Positions 30,579 to 45,657 of a stretch of 52,866 nt of DNA are shown here, piece after piece. Where the stretch lies: positions 1-52,866 of the forward strand of contig JAAMXY010000625.1 of the NCBI GenBank assembly GCA_019677205.1, written 5' to 3'. Position 1 is the stretch's first letter; every line of letters begins with the position of its first letter. A program made the translations under genes and the position numbers. Origin of the DNA: Pinguiococcus pyrenoidosus (taxonomy: Eukaryota > Sar > Pinguiophyceae > Pinguiochrysidales > Pinguiochrysidaceae). Under the pieces are notes generated by a model. It saw only the letters and a list, made by a program, of their open reading frames with translations, did no database searches and was not told the origin of the DNA.

Positions 30579-31832
30579 TCTGTGTCTTGCATATGGCGAG
30601 TATGCGAACGCGAGTTTCCAGCGCCGCGATGCTGTTGTCACCCGTGGCCTGGAGATGATGGGAAACCCCTATAAATATAAAAGCCGAGATTGGCGACGGC
30701 TTCCGATGGTCATTTTGGGCTAAGCACAGCGCGAACTTCGCAGGAGGAGCCGACCCAGACACCCAGGACACCAACGGCTACACGGCTCTCATGTGGGCCG
30801 CCATCTACGGCCACACGCGCGCGCTCAAGAAGCTGCTCGCCGCAGGGGCCAAAGTCGACCTCCGGGTACGAATGGCTTCAGACATCATCTCAGATATCCG
30901 TCCCTCCATCCACCCACCCATCCCGCCATTCTGGGGCTTCCTGATCGACAGCCCATCCTTCGACGCCCTGGGATGTCGATTTGCTGTGTTCCTCGGAAAG
31001 CTTGATGAGCACTGACGGGGGCTTCGCCTTAGGATGCTGCGGGAGCAACGGTGTTGTTATGGGCGTCGGGAGGAGGCCACTTCGCCATCGCGAGTGCGGT
31101 CGTGCAGTACGGCGCGAGCGTAGATATCCGAGATGAGGACGGCGCGACGCCTTTGATTCTGGCCGCCAGATTCGGGCACATCCGGATTGTGGAACTGCTG
31201 CTGCAACACGGCGCACACATCAACAACGTCGATCAGGTACGTGGCGGACCGACCGCTCCTGCGGCAGGTCGCAAGTCGGAAAGGAAGCAAGGAGAAGCTC
31301 ACGCCAAGCTTTGCTTGTCTTCCTCTGTGTTCGTCTTCATGAAATAATGCACGCTAGGATCGCATGACCGCGCTTGACTACGCGATGGAGGCGGGTGAGG
31401 AAGAGATCGTCGATCTTCTGCGCATGTACAACCACGAGCTCGGTTACATCGCGGAGGAGGCCGCGTCCAGGCAGGAGCAGGAGGAGGAAGCGCACAGAAG
31501 GACGCAGATGCTCGCCAATCGGTACAGCACCCACCAGCACGATCGTGCGGCCTTCTTCGCCTCTGATGACCGCCCATCCTTCCCTCTCCAGATACGCCTA
31601 CACCGCTGCTGGTATCAACTACAACCTTGCCTTCAAGGGCGATCGCGTCCGGCGGAAAGGGCACACGGAACATGTCGTCGCTGCTGCCGAGCACGATGAG
31701 CACTATGAGAGACCGCAGGTGGATCCGGCCAACCGCAAGAAGTCCGTCCCTGTCCATGAGCTGAACCCGATGCTGGGAGAGATGGACCGGCAAAGCTGGG
31801 CCAACCGTGGCTTCTTCGCGCCGCTCCAGTGA
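30062..31832 (+). CDS. Secreted or plastid-targeted ankyrin-repeat protein
   Basis: Five exons, join(30062..30410,30744..30865,31033..31236,31358..31521,31592..31832), 359 aa; all junctions GT-AG and in frame. The N-terminus (YLVPFLICICIG then FCAFGARASS) looks like a signal peptide with a Phe-containing, plastid-type continuation, though less clearly than in the other plastid genes. Residues about 60-260 hold five to six ankyrin repeats (GLTAVMMACIYGH, GYTALMWAAIYGH, GATVLLWASGGGH, GATPLILAARFGH, RMTALDYAMEAG). Introns 2 and 3 fall at the same place, between repeats, and exon 3 codes exactly 68 residues, that is two repeats. A charged helix and an unrecognised C-terminal domain of about 80 residues follow. 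Ankyrin repeats bind proteins; the partner is unknown. Confidence 0.8.
30532..30575. repeat. (GA)n microsatellite in ankyrin-gene intron 1
   Basis: About 20 GA dinucleotides inside the first intron (30411-30743) of the ankyrin gene. A short TATAAATATAAAAG patch follows at about 30670-30683. Confidence 0.9.
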
Positions 31833-32086: not shown

Positions 32087-35000
32087 TCATTGCCGGCCGT
32101 TCGACCCGTCTGCAACCTTCAGACCAAGGCAAGAGAATTGCCTGTGCTGCTTTGATCGGGCGAGATGGCGACAAATGAGACTGTCTCCGGCACTCACGTC
32201 GTTGCCAGCTAAGTCGAGGTCAAGGTCAAAGACCTTCTTCGGCAATGGCGAGGAAGAGTTTGTTCTCAGCGCGTCCTCCATAGCGACAACACCGCGGCTC
32301 GTGATGCCATTGCAGGAGAGATCGATGTTCTTGAGCGAGTAGTTGAAGAGGAGAATCGCAGCCAGCGAGCGGGCGCCGTCATTCCGAATTCTATTTTTTG
32401 CCAGCTTTAGTGTCTCCAGCCGGCAGTTGGCGTCGTTCACAATGCGCTCTGGTGGCAGCGCCGGCATCGCAATTGGATCCTCGCTGCTTGCTTCTACCCC
32501 ATCGGCATGCTGCTTCGCGGCCCCGGTAGGAAGGAATGCTCCGCACAAAACGTGCACACCTCGAGGGCCGAGCTCCACGCCCGTCAAATCAAGAGCTCTC
32601 AGGGCGCCGTTCTCCCGCAAAGCCCTCGAGAAAGCTTCCCACCCATCCCATCTCCGCGTCTCATCAACGGTACCAATATGAAAGATGTCCCGGCCTCCTC
32701 CTTGCAGCGTGCCGCCATGGTCATCTGACGGTAGCTTTGTCAGCGCATTCTCTGCAAGGTTCAGCGTCATCAGCGCTCGATTGTGGGCCAAGAGCGCGGC
32801 CAAAGGTCGCAGCGCCGCCGTCGACAGGCCGCAATCCGTCAGAATCAGGTGCAGGAGCGTTCCGTTGTGCGCCAAGCCCCGCGCCAAGTGGCTGGCACCC
32901 TGATCGCCCAGCGGATTTCCACTGAGATCCAGGTTGAGCAACGCTTCGTTCCGCTCCAGAGCGTGGGCCAAGCGCCGTACGCCCGAGGATGTGTAGTCAT
33001 TCCCTTGCAGAAGGAGATTCTGAAGGCACGATCCCTCGTCGGAGGTGAAGCGTGCGAAGGCCCCGAGAATCTCGTTGCCGGCGCCTGATTGCGCAAGGCC
33101 GACCTCGCGCCATGGCGTGTGGTACAGGCGCAAGGAGCTCACCAGTCTTCGCACTTCGGACCTTCGCATGCCGGGATTGAAGCTCAGCTCGACGCGTTGC
33201 AAGCTGAGGTTGAACTTCGCCACGTCGGACAGCCGCTTGGCGCAGGCCTTCCCAAGCCGGCAGCCGGCCATTCTCAAAGCTTTGATTCGGTCATTGTAGC
33301 TCGGCGCCCTCGTCCTTCGCTCGCTCCCTGGTGGCGTGTCCGACTCTCCTTCGGTTCTTCCATTCCCATCCTCACCATGGTCGTTGTCGAAATCGCCGAG
33401 CGTTTGCACGTATTCAGGCGGAGCCAATGCATTCAAAATGGTCGCACCGCCCTCATCACCGATTGGGTTGAACGAGATGTCCAACGATTTCAGAGCTAGC
33501 GGGGTGGCGCCGCCGTAGAACCCCTCGCGGGCACATGGAATCTTGCTGTCGGTGTCCGGAGCAGCTAGAGCTTCCGCCAATGCCACCGCGCCTTCGACCG
33601 CGAACGCGTTGTAGGAGAGGTCGAGATCTTCCAGCCCTGCGATGGGGCTACGCGGCGAAGCCTCCGAAACCCGCACGGACACCAGAGCAATCACTGCGTC
33701 GTCGGACAAGCGATTGTAGGCAAGCTTGAGCACCCGGAGCCTCGGCATTCGCGGCAACGCTTGTGCGACGGCTGCGATGTGAAGATCCTCAAGACCCAAG
33801 CCGGCGAGGTCGAGGGTGGCCATGGTGTCGCCGCACAAATCGTCCTTGCCGAGAGTGCCATTGCGAAAGAGGCCGGGAATGCCCCGCAACTTGTCGGTGA
33901 GCTCCGCCGTCGCATCTCTTCCGCGGGGTGGCGAACATGGCAACTCCTCAGGGGTGGTGCCTGTGCCGCTGTTGACCGCTTTCGCGCTGGTACGCATGGT
34001 AGCGTCCGCATGCGCTCCTGTACTCGCAGGGTCTGCAGCCAACTCCATCGGATTGGGATGATGGAGCGCGTAGAAGCAGGTTTCGCAATAGAGCTTGTGT
34101 CGGGTGTATCTGTCTTCTAGGCTCTTCAAGCGGCTCTTCGTTTCCTCGGTGAAAACGATACTTTCCCGCGCTTCCTTCAGCAGCTGCATGGCCGCCTGGG
34201 CAGTCAGGCCCTCGCGCCGCATCAGGTAGGCGGAGCAAACAAGCGGGACGCATTCGTTCCCGCTGCGAGACGCGAGCAGCAGTCGCGTCTTCTCGTAGCC
34301 CTAGTCCACAGAAAGAGGATGGAGGATCTTGTTACGGACCGAGCGACCAAAGACACTCCTTCAAAGACGGTTCTTCAGTACCTCCCGAGAGAATGCATTA
34401 TCAGTGTGGTCCATGATCTCCACCAGTGCATCTTCGTCTGCAGCGACGACCGCCACGCCGGCATTGGTGTCCTCCTGTTGGAAGTGGAAGTCTCTCCAAT
34501 GCACGGCGCTCACGAACGGGTCCACGCTAGACTTGCAGACATTTCTTACACGAGAATCAAGATTCACCACATGCGTGATGCCTAGCGCCAGGATGGTGGT
34601 GGGTCGGGTCGCCGCGGCGTTGCCAATCCACAGGCTGCCTTTGAGGATCTCCGACGCATCTCTGGTGGATCCTACGGCGTCACATACCGACGCTCTCACT
34701 CTATCCGCAGAAGGGCAGCTGCGACACTGTAGTTCAGCAGCAGCACCGCATACTTCACACGAAAAGTGCGCTTCCAAGTCCTCAAGAAACTCCGGCACGT
34801 GAACAACGGACAAGTCGACAAGGCGACGCTCTTCACCGACGCTTTCTTTCGGTTTCTCCCCTTCTGCTTCCAGCAGCAGCAGTTCTCCATGAAGTTTTGG
34901 ACGGTCCTCCACGCTGCGCCAGCCGCCCTCGCCAGGTCGCCAGAGCAGCGTGGACGGCCCGATCTTCGCGTCGCTGAAGAGTCGCTTCAGCGAAGCGCGT

Positions 35001-35152
35001 GTGGCAGGGCCACCGACCTTGCGCTTTTGATCGCGTGAAGACTTGCTTGACACGGAGACATAGAACCACTGTTCTGAAGGCGCCTTTGGCGCACTTGAAG
35101 CGCTCTTGATGGGCGGTAGTATAGGAACGGAAAGATACTGCGCGCTTCGCAT
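32087..35152 (-). CDS. GYF-like, inactive dual-specificity phosphatase and leucine-rich repeat protein
   Basis: Two exons, complement(join(32087..34300,34382..35152)), 994 aa. The intron (GTACTG...GACTAG, phase 0) was placed because it joins two halves of one phosphatase domain. Order: GYF-like domain at about 28-90 (EQWFYVSV, STLLWRPGEGGW); Cys cluster CEVCG...CRSC (Cys132, 135, 143, 146), probably zinc-binding; dual-specificity phosphatase fold at about 168-300 (LWIGNAAAT, GITHVVNLD, and VCSAYLM after the P-loop). The P-loop that should read HCx5R is ASRSGNEC: catalytic Cys is Ser268 and Arg is Cys274, so it cannot be an ordinary phosphatase. Then about 600 residues of NLR/ribonuclease-inhibitor type leucine-rich repeats (LDLSGNPLGDQGA units). 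Near the C-terminus GTGAGT at the DNA level could be a donor to one more exon. Likely a scaffold that binds phosphoproteins. Confidence 0.78.
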
Positions 35153-35584
35153 CTTCGCATCAAATCAGAATGCGCTGCGTCTAGGCATTACGCAGAATTT
35201 TGTTGCGCCTTGAAGCGCGTCATCCAGGTGCGTGGCTCGAATCTCGAGCGTTTGGAGCAGTGGAGAAGCTAAAAGCCCACATGACGCTCAGGAACGCTCA
35301 CCAGACGCGATAAGGCGCTGCGCAAAACGGAACGAATTCACGGAAGTGGACGAGATCCCGAAGGGGTGCAACTTCATTCATAATGCATTCAAACGCGGCT
35401 TGATCATATCACAATTTATATCATATAGATTCGAATAAAAATGCACATATTAATTAATACATCATAAAAGTACAGAATATAGGATAATATAATATAACAT
35501 AACATAAGATCAAACCAAGGCAACACGCTTTCTGCAAGGCGCTTTTCTGCGGCGGCTTTCCGCGCCGCATTCTGCATCCAGATC
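35153..35584. promoter_or_regulatory. Divergent promoter region with AT-rich islet, LRR protein / IFT27
   Basis: 432 bp. A strongly AT-rich islet at about 35400-35510 contains runs such as TTAATTAATAC and ATAATATAATATAAC. It is followed by a GC-rich block (GCGGCGGCTTTCCGCGCCGC) just before the IFT27 ATG. Confidence 0.4.
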
Positions 35585-36314
35585 ATGAGTAGTAAGGCCG
35601 ATGAGGGCTCCGGAGGCCTCATGCAGACGAACTTCCGACCCACGCTCATGGTTCGATGCAAGGTGGTGGTCGTCGGAGACGCCTGTGTTGGGAAGACGGC
35701 GATTGCGCAGATGTTTGAATCCAACTTGCAGCACTACCCCTCCAAGTACAACATGACCACCTCCGTAGAGCTCATCGTCAAGCGAGTGCCCATCCAGAAG
35801 GAAGAGGCGCACGCGATGGCGGAGCTGTACCTCTTCGACTGCCCAGGGCAGAGCATCTTTAACCAGGTTTCCACCAAAGGCCCCTCTGGGTTTGCGTGGC
35901 CAAGCTGAGCCGCTGACGATGTCGCTTCTCTGTCAGGTCGGGACCAACTCCAGAAACTTTGAGAACGCAGCGTTTGTGGTGGTCGTCTTCGACGTCGCCT
36001 CGCGGGAGTCCTTTCAATCGTGCGGTCGGTGGCTGCAGCAGATCCGCAGCACGAGACCGTCTTCGGGGCCCCAGATCCCTGGTGTACTCTTGGCAAATAA
36101 GATAGATCTGCGTGGAGATAGTCTCAGTAGCCGCGCCGAGGTCACCGCGAAAGAAGCCCAGGTGTTCGCGGAAGAGAACGGGTTGAAGTACTTCGAGTGC
36201 TCGGCATCTCAGGGCCTTGGCGTCAACGAACCCTTCCAGTACATTGCCAATGACTTTCATGAGGGATACGAGGAGGCCTCGGGCAGTCCTGAGAACATGA
36301 TGGACGAAATGTAG
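35585..36314 (+). CDS. IFT27: IFT27/RABL4 small GTPase
   Basis: Two exons, join(35585..35866,35937..36314), 219 aa, with a 70-bp intron (GTTTCC...TGTCAG, phase 0). G1 P-loop GDACVGKT at 31-38; switch II DCPGQ at 85-89 with the Gln retained; NKID (G4) at 148-151; SA-type G5 in ECSAS. The features that separate IFT27 from ordinary Rabs are present: the TTSVELIVKRVPI strand after switch I, the insert with acidic residues before ELYLFD, and no C-terminal prenylation cysteines. IFT27 pairs with IFT25 in the IFT-B complex and helps export cargo from cilia through the BBSome. Its presence implies a flagellated life stage. Confidence 0.87.
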
Positions 36315-39006: not shown

Positions 39007-42000
39007 ATGGCCCGCCGCTCGGAAAGCGTTCAGGAGAAGGTCCATGAGGTGCTGAGCCGGTCCTTTGTGGGAAAGGGCGTGGGCCTGGAGGCGCCCAAGA
39101 CCCGTGATAGGAAGACCCACGCAGGGCTGTCTCCGTCCAGCCCGGCCTCTCGCCGAGCCGAACGGCGCCGCACGACGCTCTCGTCCCCTTCCCCGTCTAC
39201 AGCAGCGACGAAGCTACGGCGAGTGCCGAGACTTGCAGGGCAAGGCGGGGCCCGGAGCCCTTCCTCGCCTTCGACAGGGCAACGGGTCTTCCAAGGAGGG
39301 AGCAGAGTGAGCGTGGACGACAATCCTTGGCTTCTCGAAGCGGAAGCGGCGCTGTCTCGAGCCGCGAGCATCTACGACGAATGGCACGTGAAGTCACAGG
39401 GCGAAGATGCGGATCTCGGAAAGACACCTGCGCCGCGACCGTCCTTCTCGGAAGGTGGCTCACTGGCATCAGTACAATCCGGAACTGCCGTCACAAGGAG
39501 GGAGACGGTCAGATCGGCCCTCCAGTCCTTGCTGGAGTGGATTCGCGGCCTGCATGTGGACAGCGCGCCGCCGGCAGCGTCCAAGGTCGGCATGCAAAGC
39601 GACATGAGGCTCTTGGAAGAGAAGCTGCTCGATCTGCACACGACGCTAGCAACGCCTCAGGGGCAAGACGCTCTCGGCGGAACGGCAGACGAGCGCGAAG
39701 CTCGCTCGCACAGCAATCCGACACGTGCACGGAGTGGACGGCTATCCGATCTCGCGTCGGATAGCAACGCCTCGACGCCTTCGACCAGTGGCAATGCCGA
39801 CGCATCCCAAAAGTCTGGCGCTCCTACAACTTTGAGCAATAGGGCACAAGAGGCTAAGCTCGTCGACATGTCGATTCGTTCCCCTGAAATCGAGGAGCTG
39901 CTAGCCGAAGAAGTGCGTGGAGACGACCTGGCGGAAATCGTCTCTCGGCAGCGTCGACGTCTGGAGGAAATGGACGTGACGCATACCGTGAAGCTGCAAG
40001 ATCTGCGGAGCAGCTTGCGCGCCGTCCAGACGGACTACGGCGTCCTCGCAAAGGAGAACGCGCTGCTAGACTACAAGCTGCGCCTCATTGAGCAAGTGGA
40101 GCGCAACGAGGAGGTATTGCGAATCATCGCGTGGGGAGACGAAGCCGACGACGCCGCTCTCATGAAAAACATGAAAGAAGGCTATGCGCAGCGGATTCAC
40201 GAACTAAACGAGCAGCGACAAGCGCTGATGGACGAGCGCGATGCCTTGCGAAGCCGCCTGAAGCAGCAGGACGACACCATCACGGGAATGACCCAGCACA
40301 TCAACGAGCACCTGGGCGGCCGGGGTGGTCAGGACGGCGCCCATCTCGTTCGGCAACTGGCTGCCAAAGACGACGAGATCCGTGGCTACCAAGAGGCCCT
40401 CAGCCTGCGCACAAGGGAGCTCGAGAGTGCCGAGCAAGCGCTGCGGACGCAAGCACAGGTGGCGGCGTCAGCTGAGGCGGAGCACAACGCCAACGCCGAA
40501 AAGCTGCATCACAGTCTCGACGAGCAGAAGCTGCAGCTCGAGAGACTGACTGCGGAGAGAGCGCGAACAGAAAAAGATACGAGGGAGCTTCGGCAACAAC
40601 TCGCGCGGTTCAACGCCAAAGAGGCCTCCAAGTCTGGAGAGCCAAAGAACGAGGACCCTGATGCCACCGAAGCGGAAGAAGAAGCGCTACACGCGGAGCT
40701 TGCTAGCATTCGCCTCGAGAATCAAGAGCTTCGTGGGGCGGTCGCAGCTGCAACGCGGGAGACTCACGAACTGACGAAACGTCTGGCTATGAAAGAAGAA
40801 GAAGCGGCCAAAGTGGCAACGAAACCGCCGGTCCATGACGCAGGTTCTTCTCAGGTGCAGCCTGATGCCGCCTTGGAGGCCGAGCTCGCAGCCACTAGAT
40901 CTCGCGAGAGAGAGCTGAAGCAGAGAATGCTCTCGCTGTCTCAGCAGGCGGAGGAGGGGCGAGCAGCGCTGACGCAGGCCAACGAGGATCTGCTCGCCGC
41001 CAGGACGGATGCCGAGGAATCCTCGGCGCGCCTTGAGCACTTCTGGGCCAAGGCGCGAGCTCTGCAAGAGGCTTTGCCACTTCCAGAAAAGGATTTGTCT
41101 CTCGATTTGGAAGAGACGATTCAACAGGAGCTGGTAGCGACAATCCATCGCACCGTCGACGTTCTGCGCAAGAGTGAAGGCAAGGTGAACATCCTTCCAC
41201 AGCAGATAGGAAGCGCCACCGCGGCGATTCTAAGCGCTGCAGCGCAGATTCACAGTCGCGAAAGCCAACAAGCAGCGATACAAAGCTTGCAAGCCGAGGT
41301 GAAGCGCCTGGAAGAATCTCGCCAAGATGTCGTGAGAGATTGGGAGGTTGAGAGGCAGCGCGCAGCCAAGCTTGAAGCAGGGGCCCTCGGCACCAAAGAC
41401 GCGGTCGATGAGATCATGTGCCAAAGGAATCAAGCTCAAGCTCGGTACCAGGAGCTCTGCGATACCCTTGGATTGTCGGAACAGAAACGTGAGCTAGTAC
41501 ATGAAGAAGTCCTTCTCCTAGCGACTGAGCTACGGCTACGGGAGAGAGCCGAAGTGATTACGGTCCCTACGCAGACAACACCTCCCCCTCGAGAAGAGAA
41601 AGGAGTACAAGTGGGCCTCCCGGGCCGTTCCGATGAGCCGGAGGCCGTTCAAGCTGAAGACGATCATGGAGAAGAGCAGATTCGCCTCGAAGAGCTTGTC
41701 CAAGTAAACGAGGAACTGGAGCGTCAGCTCGGCGCCAAGGACGAGCATCTGAAGGCGTTGCAGGCGGAACTGGAAAAGGGTGGTTCTTCAGAGGATGGAT
41801 CGGGCAGTTCAGCCGAGAATGACGCTCTCCTTGCACAGTCTCAGCGAGAAGCGCGTGTGCTGCGGCGACAACTCGACGAAGCGAATGCCAAGCTTGAAGA
41901 CGCTGCCGTCAAGATCGGCACTCTTCAGCATTCCCACGCCGAGACCCTCGCCACTCTCCGCGCTACCGGAGATGCGTGGGGAGAGCCCCACAGCAGCAAG

Positions 42001-45000
42001 GGCGTGCACGAGGAGACACCTGAAGCAGTCGTCGAGTTGCCAAGGCGAAGAACGGGTCAGGCGCAACTGCAACAAACGCGGGAAGAGATCCTCAGGCAGC
42101 TCACCGGTTTGGTCGGGGAGACCTCCACTTCACAAGAAGGTGATCACGTCTCGGCCGAGATCGAGAAAGTGGGCGGAGTGGAAGGACCAGGCCAGGATGT
42201 TGAGGCCTTTGCGACGGAGGGCAGTGGGGGGAGAGAAGCGACATCGACGTCCTTCGTCGGTGGTGGCCGAACTACGTCTATGTCAGTACAGGAGGCCCCA
42301 ATGCGTAGCATGAGTAGAGAAGAAGAAGAAGGAGGAGGAGGAGGAGGAGGAGGCGGAGGAGGAGGAGGAGGCGGAGGAGTAGGAGGGGTGGGAGGAAGGG
42401 GAGAAGCAGGATATGAAGACGAAAGAAAACATGGACAACTCCGAGACGAGGAAGACGCTGATGGCAACGACTTTGTCAGGAAAGGATATTCGAATGCGGT
42501 GCCCAGCAATGATCATCAGACTACCGAAGGCGCACCAGAGACCCAAGGCGCGGTACTGGGCATCGCGGCTGCGGTTCCCACTCCAACAACGCCGGAATCT
42601 GATTCCGGCAACGATGTCGACGATCCAAGAGCGGCATCCGTCGACGCTACACCAGCCAACACCAATCAAGATGCTGTGCAGAGCGGCGAAGCGTCGCAAA
42701 GCCCGGCTCAACACAAAGCACCTTCGATCTTGGTTGAGAGTGCGAAGGAAGCACCGCCGCTGCCTTTTGCAGCGGCTTCGACGACTGCCGAAGAGCAGGG
42801 AATCGCGCAACCGATCAAGCAAAGCGTCTTGGACATGGAACAAGACTGCAACGTCAAGATCGGTGAAATCTCGCGTCGAGAAGCAGAAGCTGCATTGCAT
42901 GCAAAAATCACGGACGCAGCGAAAACTGCTCACCAGACCTCCCAAAAACCCAGGGAGCTGTCTGAGGAAGCTGCCGGTAGGATTCCGGCACCTCCATCAC
43001 GACCAAGGCGACAGGACGACGCCAGCGAGCTCGTAAGCCAAGTCTTGCAGGCTTTGTCGACGTCGACGCTGAGCCTCCCCCGGGCCACGACGCTGCTGGG
43101 GCAGGTGGTGCAGCGCCTGCAGCATCCAGCAGAGCTTTCCGAGCGCCATCGAAGAGCCCTGGATCTCGGCGTCGCCGGACTACGAGGCGCTCTACGTCGC
43201 TTCCCAGTCCAAGCGCAGGCAGCGTTGCTGCAGCAAGTCCGCCTGATCCAGCGGAAGTACGCCGTGCTTTCGGACTGGTCCAACGCGCTGTCGTCCTCGC
43301 CGAAGCACGCCGGACAGCTTCAGGCCACCGCCGAAGTCCAAGGCATCCAGCAAGACGAGCTGCAGGAATCCATTGCGGACTGCGGCGCGTGGAGAGCCGC
43401 TTTGTATCTTTCCACCGGAGACATCGACACCGAGCTGGACGTCGACGTCTGGCCGGCCGAGCAGCAGCTGGAGATCCTCAAGGAAAGTCGCACGTTCCTT
43501 AGTCGGCAGCTGCAGCAGCTCGCTCGCCTAAGAAGGGTAGACAATCAGGCAGCTGCACGTGTGGATGAGCTGGAGAATCTGCTGCACACCGCGGAGCGGG
43601 AGCGGCGTGAGATGCAGCAGAAGCTCACAAGGTTGGAAAGCGAAGCGGCTCGAAAGGATAGCCACCCTACGGATGAGCAGCAGGCGAACTACGAAGAGCG
43701 TCTCGCTGTTACAGGGGCTCTCCTGGAGCAAGCACGAGAAAGTCAGAAACGAGCCGAGGCAGAACTGGAGGAGGCGAGGGCAAAGCTTCAAGAAGCAGAG
43801 CAGACCGCCAAGAAGCGGCGGTACCCAAAGCGTCGCAACATCGCAGAAGACACCTCTTACGAGCCGGAAGATGCCGAGTTCGAAGACGCGGATGGGATCT
43901 GGTTCCCGACGCAAAAGTTCATGAGCTCCATCGCCGGGCAGAGGGCGGCACGACGAGATGCAAAGCTCCTCAAGGCTCTCAACGCTAAGCTGGAGGGTCT
44001 GCTCTTGCGCCTGCAGGCAGAGATGCGCAGCGCGCTCGAGTACTTCCTGAGCGAGTTCCTCGCGCAGATGGACAAGTTTGCCGGCATGCTGGATCAGCTC
44101 AGTATTCCCTCGGAGCACGAGGAGCCCGTGCGAAGGGCCTTCGAGTTGATTGCAGGGCCCCAGACCGGCGCTGCGGATCCTTCGGTGCGCATCGCCAACG
44201 CGCTCGCACCTGTTCCGACGGAGCCCAAGGCGGAGGTGGATGCCGTACAAAGGCTTGTGGAAGGCTCGAGAATTGCGTTCGATCGATGCGTCCACGAGCT
44301 CGCACGAGCTGGCGACGCATTGACGGGCAAGGCCAGCGTGCTGGTGGACTACATGACCAAGCAGCTCGCTCTCAAGGAAACCGAGGCAGAGGCGCAGGGG
44401 AATCGTATCGCTGCCTTGCATAAGCGCCTGTGGACAATCAAAAGAGCACTGCGGGCAGATGACAAGGTGGCGGCACTGATGGAGAAGGTTGATGCGCTTG
44501 CACAGGAGAGGGATTTGCTGCGATCCGACCCCGAGAAGCCGTCTCCGCAGGCGGCGTCGTCGGAGGCCTTTTTGGAGCATCTCGAGCACCTGGTCCAGAA
44601 AGAGCAGCAGCTGATCAAGGCGATCTCGAGCTTCGCGATGCGGAAGCTCACGCTGGATCGGCAGCTTCTTGACATCGAAAGGCGACGATCTCAAGACGCG
44701 CATGATGAGCAGGAGGAGAAAGCGCTCGCGTTCCGCTTGCGGAGACTGAAGCTGCAGTCGAGGAATCTTACGGAGAGGTGGGCGGCAGTGAAGTGGGAGC
44801 GTTCGCGGGTGTCACAGCAAATTGTAAACCTCTTCTGGCGCATCGATCGCATCATGCAGCTGGTCTTCCAAGGAAGTTCCTTCCGACGCCTCGCCTTTTG
44901 GGCGAAAGCCGTCAGTTCCAGGGTATCGAAGGAGCAAAGGGAGGCGTCGGTAGTGGGCACGTGGGGCCACAAGACAAGCCTCGATGCTACCGTCCTCGCG

Positions 45001-45657
45001 CCGACGGAGGCCATCGAACGGCATGTCGAGCAGCAGTATCCTGCGGTTGCTGAGAGGTACTGCTCGTCCCCGCTCATTCGAGTTTTGGTGGAGCAGCAGC
45101 GGAAGCAGATGGCAACGCTGGATGGTCACCAGATGCCTACGCTGGACGGTCAACAGATGTCTGACGATCAGAGTTACGTGTTGGAAACGGCACATGCCGA
45201 CGACGAGTCCTCGCTCCCGACCATCTCTTCTGCGCGAAGCAGGGCTGGTCGAAGGCAGCACGCGTCCTTTGAACACTTGCGGCGGATGGAGAGGCAAGGG
45301 AGTTGGTCAACTTGGGCCGGTGCCGGCAAGACCGACTCGAGCGACGACGAGAACACCGCCGCAACCATGGACGTGCCCTCCCAAACCCGTCGGCCGCTGC
45401 GGTCCTTCCCGTCAAGGCGGATGCCCCGGCGTCCGCCAACGACTCCGCAGCCGGACGTGCTGGATCTGCACATTCCATTCCTCGGCATCCTCCGTTCGTC
45501 CGTGCTGGAGAAGCGCAGCCACATGAAGCGCCTGAAGCGGATCGAGAAGCCTCCCGAGCAGACGCTTCTCATCAGCCGTGCGGCCGTGTCGCAGCCCATT
45601 CGGGGGCGTCAGCCGCAGCGTCGCCCGCAGCGCCGACCGATTGCAAACAAGCAGTGA
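39007..45657 (+). CDS. Very large coiled-coil protein, unknown function
   Basis: Single uninterrupted exon, 2216 aa, ATG at 39007. Residues 1-290 are basic, Ser/Pro-rich and disordered. Long heptad coiled coils span about 290-1000, followed by a disordered region with a poly-Glu/poly-Gly run at about 1099-1125 (coded by GGA repeats). A second, more conserved-looking half from about 1340 mixes coiled coil with helical blocks (SNALSSSPKHAGQLQ; RYPKRRNIAEDTSYEPEDAEFEDADG; MDKFAGMLDQLS). There is a short duplication MATLDGHQ/MPTLDGQQ at about 2036-2051. The C-terminus is very basic with a defined segment, VLDLHIPFLGILRSSVLEKRSHMKRL read in two parts. I do not recognise the family. Size and composition suit a basal-body, flagellar rootlet, Golgi tether or cytoskeletal scaffold. 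An alternative first exon at 38730 is possible. Confidence 0.7.
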   Translation: MARRSESVQEKVHEVLSRSFVGKGVGLEAPKTRDRKTHAGLSPSSPASRRAERRRTTLSSPSPSTAATKLRRVPRLAGQGGARSPSSPSTGQRVFQGGSRVSVDDNPWLLEAEAALSRAASIYDEWHVKSQGEDADLGKTPAPRPSFSEGGSLASVQSGTAVTRRETVRSALQSLLEWIRGLHVDSAPPAASKVGMQSDMRLLEEKLLDLHTTLATPQGQDALGGTADEREARSHSNPTRARSGRLSDLASDSNASTPSTSGNADASQKSGAPTTLSNRAQEAKLVDMSIRSPEIEELLAEEVRGDDLAEIVSRQRRRLEEMDVTHTVKLQDLRSSLRAVQTDYGVLAKENALLDYKLRLIEQVERNEEVLRIIAWGDEADDAALMKNMKEGYAQRIHELNEQRQALMDERDALRSRLKQQDDTITGMTQHINEHLGGRGGQDGAHLVRQLAAKDDEIRGYQEALSLRTRELESAEQALRTQAQVAASAEAEHNANAEKLHHSLDEQKLQLERLTAERARTEKDTRELRQQLARFNAKEASKSGEPKNEDPDATEAEEEALHAELASIRLENQELRGAVAAATRETHELTKRLAMKEEEAAKVATKPPVHDAGSSQVQPDAALEAELAATRSRERELKQRMLSLSQQAEEGRAALTQANEDLLAARTDAEESSARLEHFWAKARALQEALPLPEKDLSLDLEETIQQELVATIHRTVDVLRKSEGKVNILPQQIGSATAAILSAAAQIHSRESQQAAIQSLQAEVKRLEESRQDVVRDWEVERQRAAKLEAGALGTKDAVDEIMCQRNQAQARYQELCDTLGLSEQKRELVHEEVLLLATELRLRERAEVITVPTQTTPPPREEKGVQVGLPGRSDEPEAVQAEDDHGEEQIRLEELVQVNEELERQLGAKDEHLKALQAELEKGGSSEDGSGSSAENDALLAQSQREARVLRRQLDEANAKLEDAAVKIGTLQHSHAETLATLRATGDAWGEPHSSKGVHEETPEAVVELPRRRTGQAQLQQTREEILRQLTGLVGETSTSQEGDHVSAEIEKVGGVEGPGQDVEAFATEGSGGREATSTSFVGGGRTTSMSVQEAPMRSMSREEEEGGGGGGGGGGGGGGGGVGGVGGRGEAGYEDERKHGQLRDEEDADGNDFVRKGYSNAVPSNDHQTTEGAPETQGAVLGIAAAVPTPTTPESDSGNDVDDPRAASVDATPANTNQDAVQSGEASQSPAQHKAPSILVESAKEAPPLPFAAASTTAEEQGIAQPIKQSVLDMEQDCNVKIGEISRREAEAALHAKITDAAKTAHQTSQKPRELSEEAAGRIPAPPSRPRRQDDASELVSQVLQALSTSTLSLPRATTLLGQVVQRLQHPAELSERHRRALDLGVAGLRGALRRFPVQAQAALLQQVRLIQRKYAVLSDWSNALSSSPKHAGQLQATAEVQGIQQDELQESIADCGAWRAALYLSTGDIDTELDVDVWPAEQQLEILKESRTFLSRQLQQLARLRRVDNQAAARVDELENLLHTAERERREMQQKLTRLESEAARKDSHPTDEQQANYEERLAVTGALLEQARESQKRAEAELEEARAKLQEAEQTAKKRRYPKRRNIAEDTSYEPEDAEFEDADGIWFPTQKFMSSIAGQRAARRDAKLLKALNAKLEGLLLRLQAEMRSALEYFLSEFLAQMDKFAGMLDQLSIPSEHEEPVRRAFELIAGPQTGAADPSVRIANALAPVPTEPKAEVDAVQRLVEGSRIAFDRCVHELARAGDALTGKASVLVDYMTKQLALKETEAEAQGNRIAALHKRLWTIKRALRADDKVAALMEKVDALAQERDLLRSDPEKPSPQAASSEAFLEHLEHLVQKEQQLIKAISSFAMRKLTLDRQLLDIERRRSQDAHDEQEEKALAFRLRRLKLQSRNLTERWAAVKWERSRVSQQIVNLFWRIDRIMQLVFQGSSFRRLAFWAKAVSSRVSKEQREASVVGTWGHKTSLDATVLAPTEAIERHVEQQYPAVAERYCSSPLIRVLVEQQRKQMATLDGHQMPTLDGQQMSDDQSYVLETAHADDESSLPTISSARSRAGRRQHASFEHLRRMERQGSWSTWAGAGKTDSSDDENTAATMDVPSQTRRPLRSFPSRRMPRRPPTTPQPDVLDLHIPFLGILRSSVLEKRSHMKRLKRIEKPPEQTLLISRAAVSQPIRGRQPQRRPQRRPIANKQ
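42325..42400. repeat. (GGA)n coding repeat (poly-Gly)
   Basis: About 20 GGA/GGC triplets after a short GAA run. Read in frame it gives Glu4 then about 16 Gly, then a GVGGVGG tail, in the presumed hinge between the two coiled-coil halves of the large protein. Confidence 0.9.

What the first reader, a model, noticed from the sequence alone, without database searches (positions are those of the whole stretch)
32087..35152. GYF-like, pseudophosphatase and leucine-rich-repeat fusion
When two adjacent minus-strand frames are spliced (34301-34381), they form one dual-specificity phosphatase fold whose P-loop keeps its length and flanks (…LLL, then AYLM) but has Ser in place of the catalytic Cys and Cys in place of the Arg. 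It is preceded by a GYF-like domain and a Cys cluster and followed by about 600 residues of NLR/RI-type repeats. I know no described protein with this order. A phosphatase fold without chemistry, tied to a peptide-binding domain and a large repeat scaffold, suggests a phospho-dependent adaptor.
Basis: partly seen in the sequence, partly recalled or inferred. Interest (0 to 1): 0.75.

Follow-up and report, generated by a model that had tools for sequence, protein, structure and literature searches.

The report
Dead phosphatase nested in zinc finger
An alga carries one large, apparently intact gene whose protein joins a small binding domain, a phosphatase-shaped domain that has lost its chemistry and seems to sit inside a split zinc finger, and a long repeat scaffold; it is probably a docking protein, unusual in build but made of known parts.

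Summary
An 81-nt GT-AG intron (34301-34381, minus strand) with in-frame stops joins two frames into 994 residues. Pfam sees GYF_2, a dual-specificity phosphatase (DSP) domain spanning the junction (profile 1-131 of 133; 34.4 bits against a cut-off of 33.5 when isolated, below it in longer sequences) and ribonuclease-inhibitor-type leucine-rich repeats. The P-loop reads ASRSGNEC: Cys is Ser, Arg is Cys; the 10 other DSP places found in this genome all keep HCx5R. New: the Cys cluster resembles the front half of a B-box zinc finger whose back half lies just behind the DSP domain. With the DSP domain cut out, two of four joins reach the cut-off of Pfam's ANCHR-like B-box; ligand spacing is 2-7-2-(182)-2-4 against mostly 2-8-2-4-2-4 in ten boxes of this genome, but the last ligand is displaced. 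Most likely a non-catalytic scaffold. No relative was found in the protein and viral collections searched; transcripts could not be checked; structure prediction failed.

The parts
32087..35152 (-). Whole coding region, two exons, 994 aa, start codon at 35152, stop codon ending at 32087
   Evidence: codon use
34301..34381 (-). Intron, 81 nt, GT-AG, phase 0, in-frame TGA and TAG, GC 0.49 against 0.58 and 0.61 in the exons
   Evidence: inferred from sequence, no RNA
34892..35071 (-). GYF_2 domain (Pfam core residues 45-87; extended by eye to 28)
   Evidence: E 1.6e-7; weak fold match to the GltJ GYF domain (E 3.4e-3)
34715..34759 (-). Front half of B-box-like zinc finger, C132-x2-C135-x7-C143-x2-C146
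34382..34633 (-). Phosphatase-like domain, part in exon 1 (residues 174-257)
34115..34300 (-). Phosphatase-like domain, part in exon 2 (residues 258-319)
34250..34273 (-). Degenerate P-loop ASRSGNEC in place of HCx5R (residues 267-274)
   Evidence: contrast
34058..34087 (-). Back half of B-box-like zinc finger, C329-x2-C332-x4-H337-H338
32156..33820 (-). Ribonuclease-inhibitor-type leucine-rich repeats with non-repeat inserts (residues about 418-972, limits by eye)

Best explanation
One single-copy gene of a photosynthetic alga with an open frame encodes a non-catalytic scaffold: GYF_2, then a B-box-like zinc finger whose loop between the second and third ligand pairs has been replaced by a whole, catalytically dead dual-specificity phosphatase domain, then a ribonuclease-inhibitor-type LRR solenoid. 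Shown from sequence: the domains, their order, the lost catalytic residues, the split ligand pattern. Inferred: the finger folds around both halves and holds the dead phosphatase domain as a rigid knob; that domain docks a protein through its surface rather than through phosphate; GYF_2 and the LRR solenoid recruit further partners, so the whole brings a signalling complex together.
For: Domains. Lost residues against 10 of 10 other DSPc places with HCx5R. Split finger: of four joins of the halves given to Pfam, ANCHR-like B-box scores were 27.5 (E 3.4e-6), 27.1, 21.1 and 15.0 bits against a cut-off of 27; front half alone, double zinc ribbon E 0.015; back half alone, no family. Ten shuffles of the best join that keep every Cys and His: four match that B-box family, at 20.4, 13.3, 12.5 and 11.1 bits, six do not. 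A profile from ten boxes of this genome scores a join 20.5 bits; 9 of 2000 C/H-keeping and 0 of 2000 full shuffles reach that. Spacing 2-7-2-182-2-4 against 2-8-2-4-2-4 in eight of ten boxes. Coding constraint. Single copy: exon 1 matches only itself, exon 2 others only in its LRR part.
Against: The join was chosen as the best of those tried (4 in Pfam, 19 with the local profile). Cys and His places carry much of the score: such shuffles average 7.3 bits with the local profile, and one of ten crossed the cut-off of another zinc family, ZZ (22.1 against 21.4). Joins also draw weak LIM, ZZ, UBR and MYND matches, and the best PDB matches of the join are ZZ domains at E 0.036, ahead of ZFYVE19 at 0.066. 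With the local profile the back half alone scores 10.6 bits, the front half 4.5, the unjoined N-terminal part of the protein 3.8. The eighth B-box ligand is not at its usual distance. No relative shows that the arrangement is conserved. AlphaFold from the single sequence failed for both parts (pLDDT 37 and 34).
Confidence: 0.5

Rival explanations
1. STYX-type phospho-dependent adaptor: the dead pocket still holds phosphorylated partners and shields them.
For: Cys to Ser is the change used in substrate-trapping mutants (recalled); the best PDB match is a VHR record whose aligned P-loop also has Ser there. STYX phosphatases are described as acting through phosphosubstrate binding (section 9 of PMC2175518).
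Against: The P-loop Arg is Cys and the residue before it Glu; STYX and MK-STYX keep Arg (passages of PMC8907265).
Confidence: 0.15
2. The two Cys clusters are independent zinc sites flanking the phosphatase domain, not one split B-box; otherwise the same scaffold.
For: The front half alone has four cysteines and draws a weak double-zinc-ribbon match (E 0.015); last B-box ligand displaced; score depends strongly on Cys and His places.
Against: The back half alone matches no Pfam family and lies about ten residues behind the phosphatase domain; two joins reach a curated B-box cut-off and none of ten C/H-keeping shuffles does so for that family.
Confidence: 0.25
3. Gene-model error: two separate genes, or a decayed or misassembled gene, with no joined protein.
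For: No RNA data; exon 1 is no longer than chance stretches and has weak codon bias as a whole (0.065 per codon); acceptor ambiguous.
Against: Phosphatase profile continuous across the join, strong codon bias on both sides of it (0.312 and 0.283), a 70-nt GT-AG intron in the neighbouring gene, no stop inside 994 codons.
Confidence: 0.06
4. Still an enzyme, with another residue as nucleophile.
For: A possible general-acid Asp (D228) is seen by eye, 40 residues before the Ser.
Against: Both residues of the CX5R mechanism are lost; the HMMER alignment with VHR places the Asp region differently.
Confidence: 0.04

Closest known systems
LRR-DSPs and kinatases of kinetoplastids, with LRR plus DSP sequences also in Entamoeba and Dictyostelium (PMC2175518, passages and section 9)
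   Same: A dual-specificity phosphatase domain fused to leucine-rich repeats, proposed as signalling scaffold
   Different: Their DSP is described as catalytic and their LRRs match SHOC2 (weakly for LRR-DSPs); here the DSP is dead, the LRRs are ribonuclease-inhibitor type, and GYF_2 and a zinc finger are added
Entamoeba pseudophosphatases with kinase domain and LRRs (PMC3827238, passages)
   Same: A phosphatase-family domain called non-functional in one chain with LRRs (two proteins)
   Different: They carry a protein kinase domain, which is not seen here; no GYF_2 or zinc finger is mentioned in the passages seen
STYX and MK-STYX pseudophosphatases (PMC8907265, passages)
   Same: DSP fold with the catalytic Cys replaced; Ser in MK-STYX as here
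   Different: They keep Arg; here Arg is Cys, and the flanking domains differ
ANCHR-like B-box zinc finger (Pfam PF22586)
   Same: Ligand pairs and spacing up to the first His, apart from one residue and the insertion
   Different: Loop of 4 residues replaced by 182 that hold a DSP domain; last ligand displaced
Other GYF_2 frames of the same genome (L010 with a WW-like stretch, L014 with a phosphodiesterase-like stretch; labels by eye)
   Same: Same domain family used as an add-on
   Different: No DSP or LRR seen by eye in those frames

Membership tests
Dual-specificity phosphatase (DSPc, PF00782) fold | Profile match over the domain | tested here: met
   1-131 of 133, 34.4 bits as isolated domain against 33.5; 28.2 and 31.2 bits, under the cut-off, in longer sequences
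Active dual-specificity phosphatase | HCx5R P-loop | tested here: not met
   ASRSGNEC
STYX-type pseudophosphatase | Catalytic Cys replaced in a DSP fold | tested here: met
   Ser268
STYX-type pseudophosphatase | P-loop Arg kept | tested here: not met
   Cys274 in place of Arg; compare
LRR-DSP | DSP and LRR in one chain | tested here: met
   the joining rests on an inferred intron, though the exon-2 frame alone holds the DSP end and the LRRs
LRR-DSP | Common descent with the protist LRR-DSPs | not tested
   Those sequences were not fetched
B-box zinc finger (ANCHR-like) | One continuous finger | tested here: not met
   Family match only after removing the DSP domain
B-box zinc finger (ANCHR-like) | Last His 6 to 8 residues after the first, as in eight of ten boxes by the script's first-His count | tested here: not met
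   His338 is adjacent to His337, the next His is 354
B-box zinc finger (ANCHR-like) | Zinc bound in cross-brace | not testable with these tools
   Structure prediction failed
GYF_2 (PF14237) | Profile match over cut-off | tested here: met
   31.4 bits against 25.8
Classical GYF proline-peptide binder | Match to the classical GYF model | tested here: not met
   Not among families with E up to 1; peptide binding itself not testable

The most novel reading that the evidence does not exclude
A whole phosphatase domain has been inserted into the loop of a B-box zinc finger and has lost its chemistry, giving a zinc-braced, non-catalytic docking module between a GYF_2 domain and an LRR solenoid: a nested-domain architecture for which the searches made here gave no precedent.
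Probability: 0.45. Interest if true: 0.5.

Novelty: new variant of a known kind. Interest (0 to 1): 0.38.

Why it matters
Pseudophosphatases are often read as phosphate-binding decoys. A DSP domain that lost both Cys and Arg yet sits, apparently, inside a zinc finger in an open gene would be a clear case of the fold kept as structure and docking surface, and an example of domain nesting as a way to make new adaptors in algae.

Tried and rejected
Protein searches with residues 1-345 of the whole protein, with exon 1, and with residues 1-130 of exon 2 found no relative (7993 candidates at E <= 0.001; 1772 and 802 candidates at E <= 1). These searches need shared five-residue words, so distant relatives could be missed. 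Viral contig scans with each exon gave 7 and 2 pattern matches, none confirmed. The prokaryote genome, phage and plasmid collections were not searched. Own genome: exon 1 matches only itself at E <= 0.01; exon 2 matches five other places at E <= 1e-5, all in the LRR part. The 10 other DSPc places were read for their P-loops, 10 of 10 with HCx5R. Flanks of 8 of them were printed in one frame; by eye I saw no such pair of Cys clusters beside the domain (L002 has one CxxC far behind it); no script tested this.

AlphaFold on single sequences gave pLDDT 37 (N part, GYF region 55-70) and 34 (LRR part), so no fold claim rests on it. Foldseek on the N part has no match at E <= 0.001; best a GYF domain at 3.4e-3, DUSP28 fragments at 0.26.

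The idea that the FQQ in this protein equals the FQQ motif of STYX was dropped: only the triplet is shared, and from recall of STYX it lies at another place. A ciliary role was considered because the head-to-head neighbour is an IFT27-like GTPase; three recalled X-box-like patterns found nothing in the 432 bp between the start codons, and nothing else bears on it. A bacterial-type promoter scan of that region is not informative for a eukaryote.

Papers: searches. Seen: passages of PMC2175518 and its section 9; passages of PMC3827238, PMC2994645, PMC8907265 and PMC10925823; the rest only as listings. PMC4672068, a RACK1 review listed with one to two mentions each of GYF domain, dual specificity phosphatase and leucine-rich repeat, was not opened.

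The first Pfam shuffle control was made from the 21.1-bit join, not from the best one (C/H-keeping shuffles reached 18.2 bits at most, full shuffles none); I therefore ran a second one on the best join.

Full report
Observation. The window is contig C254 of a 23.7 Mb, 768-contig genome. Of two light-harvesting proteins compared with solved structures, one matches fucoxanthin chlorophyll chains best, the other a chain named LHCI-11 first and VCPI-5 second; with the 29 light-harvesting matches in the genome this makes it an alga, most likely of the stramenopile kind, which is inference. On the minus strand a frame of 267 codons (34361-35164) and one of 737 codons (32087-34300) are separated by an 81-nt GT-AG stretch in phase 0 with two in-frame stops. 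Joined they give 994 residues. The stretch has lower GC (0.49) than the exons (0.58, 0.61) and, by eye, a pyrimidine-rich end; a neighbouring gene has a 70-nt GT-AG intron. Of 44 in-frame joins enumerated, 42 keep the P-loop and 2 cut into it; the same donor with acceptors 34301, 34292 and 34289 gives products that differ by up to four residues.

Is it coding? The 737-codon frame is twice the longest stretch in 40 mononucleotide shuffles (364); the 267-codon frame is of chance length (mean 268). Codon use supports both, exon 1 only narrowly as a whole but strongly in its phosphatase part.

Domains. Pfam on the whole protein: LRR_6 E 1.3e-23, GYF_2 E 1.6e-7, DSPc E 1.9e-6 with profile 1-131 of 133, below the curated cut-off in that context. 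Isolated, the phosphatase domain scores 34.4 bits (cut-off 33.5); with acceptor 34289, 37.4; with the intron read through, 32.6 in two pieces; exon-2 part alone 27.2; exon-1 part alone nothing. PDB matches by sequence are VHR/DUSP3 (E 0.0029) and DUSP28 (E 0.0072), weak, in the case of VHR along the domain.

Lost chemistry. The P-loop is A267-S-R-S-G-N-E-C274. The genome search gave 11 DSPc places, a lower bound; the 10 others, some of them PTEN-like or of other PTP kinds by eye, all read HCx5R. Loss of Cys alone is the STYX pattern; loss of Arg as well removes the residue that holds phosphate (established knowledge of the family). Groups 4 and 5 of the kinetoplastid atypical DSPs also lack the Arg (section 9 of PMC2175518).

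The split finger. The Cys cluster ahead of the phosphatase domain (CEVC-x7-CRSC) and a second one about ten residues behind it (YCETCFYALHH) resemble the two halves of B-boxes that are frequent in this genome (12 places at E <= 0.1, 7 marked over the cut-off). Four joins of the halves, without the phosphatase domain, gave ANCHR-like B-box scores of 27.5, 27.1, 21.1 and 15.0 bits (cut-off 27). The front half alone gave a weak zinc-ribbon match, the back half alone none. Ten shuffles of the best join that keep each Cys and His gave that family in four cases, at most 20.4 bits; but one of them crossed the cut-off of the ZZ family (22.1 against 21.4), so such joins can look like some zinc finger by ligand placing alone. 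An earlier control, on the 21.1-bit join, gave at most 18.2 bits in four C/H-keeping shuffles and no B-box in four full ones. A profile made from ten of the twelve places (L031 and L032 left out as weak) scored one join 20.5 bits; 9 of 2000 C/H-keeping shuffles (mean 7.3, SD 4.8) and 0 of 2000 full shuffles did as well; 18 other joins scored 7.3 to 18.9, the back half alone 10.6, the front half alone 4.5, the unjoined N-terminal part 3.8. Spacing is 2-7-2-182-2-4 against 2-8-2-4-2-4 in eight of the ten boxes, with one deviation in each of the other two. Against this: the last His is displaced, the join was picked as the best, and no relative is known.

Mechanism. Shown: an open frame with codon bias, domains in the stated order, a dead P-loop, a split B-box pattern. 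Inferred: the halves fold together and hold the phosphatase domain as a rigid protein-binding knob; GYF_2 and the LRR solenoid bind other partners; the protein acts as a scaffold without catalysis and probably without phosphate dependence. GYF_2 is not the classical GYF model, so binding of proline-rich peptides is not implied.

Known and new. DSP plus LRR proteins are published for kinetoplastids, Entamoeba and Dictyostelium; Entamoeba has two proteins called pseudophosphatases with kinase domain and LRRs; dead DSPs are known as STYX. Searches for GYF with phosphatase, LRR and stramenopile, for GYF_2 with DSPc, and for B-box with domain insertion and dual specificity phosphatase gave 0 papers each; the main text of the oomycete phosphatome paper has no mention of GYF. 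These searches cover open-licence papers only. The parts, and LRR with a dead phosphatase, are known; the full order and the nesting appear new, hence a new variant of a known kind.

Limits. No transcripts, no orthologues, no usable structure model. Whether the protein is made, binds zinc or binds partners is untested.

Noticed in passing
35585-36314 (+): IFT27-like small GTPase (PDB IFT27 E 5e-29; other Rab-type chains from 1e-17), with a 70-nt intron at 35867-35936, head to head with the focal gene; 432 bp lie between the start codons. Suggests an organism with flagella (inference).
   Followed up: partly
39007-45657 (+): Open frame of 2216 codons, coiled-coil-like by eye, without any Pfam match at E 0.01.
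   Followed up: no
L010, 1312-2988: GYF_2 (over the cut-off) followed by a WW-like stretch and, by eye, a frame change into something like a motor protein.
   Followed up: no
L014: GYF_2-like match under the cut-off in one long frame with what looks by eye like a cyclic-nucleotide phosphodiesterase.
   Followed up: no
L021-L032: ANCHR-like B-boxes are frequent in this genome: 12 places at E <= 0.1, 7 marked over the cut-off.
   Followed up: partly
30659-31347 (+): Ankyrin repeats in two neighbouring frames, probably one gene split by a short intron, converging on the focal gene.
   Followed up: no
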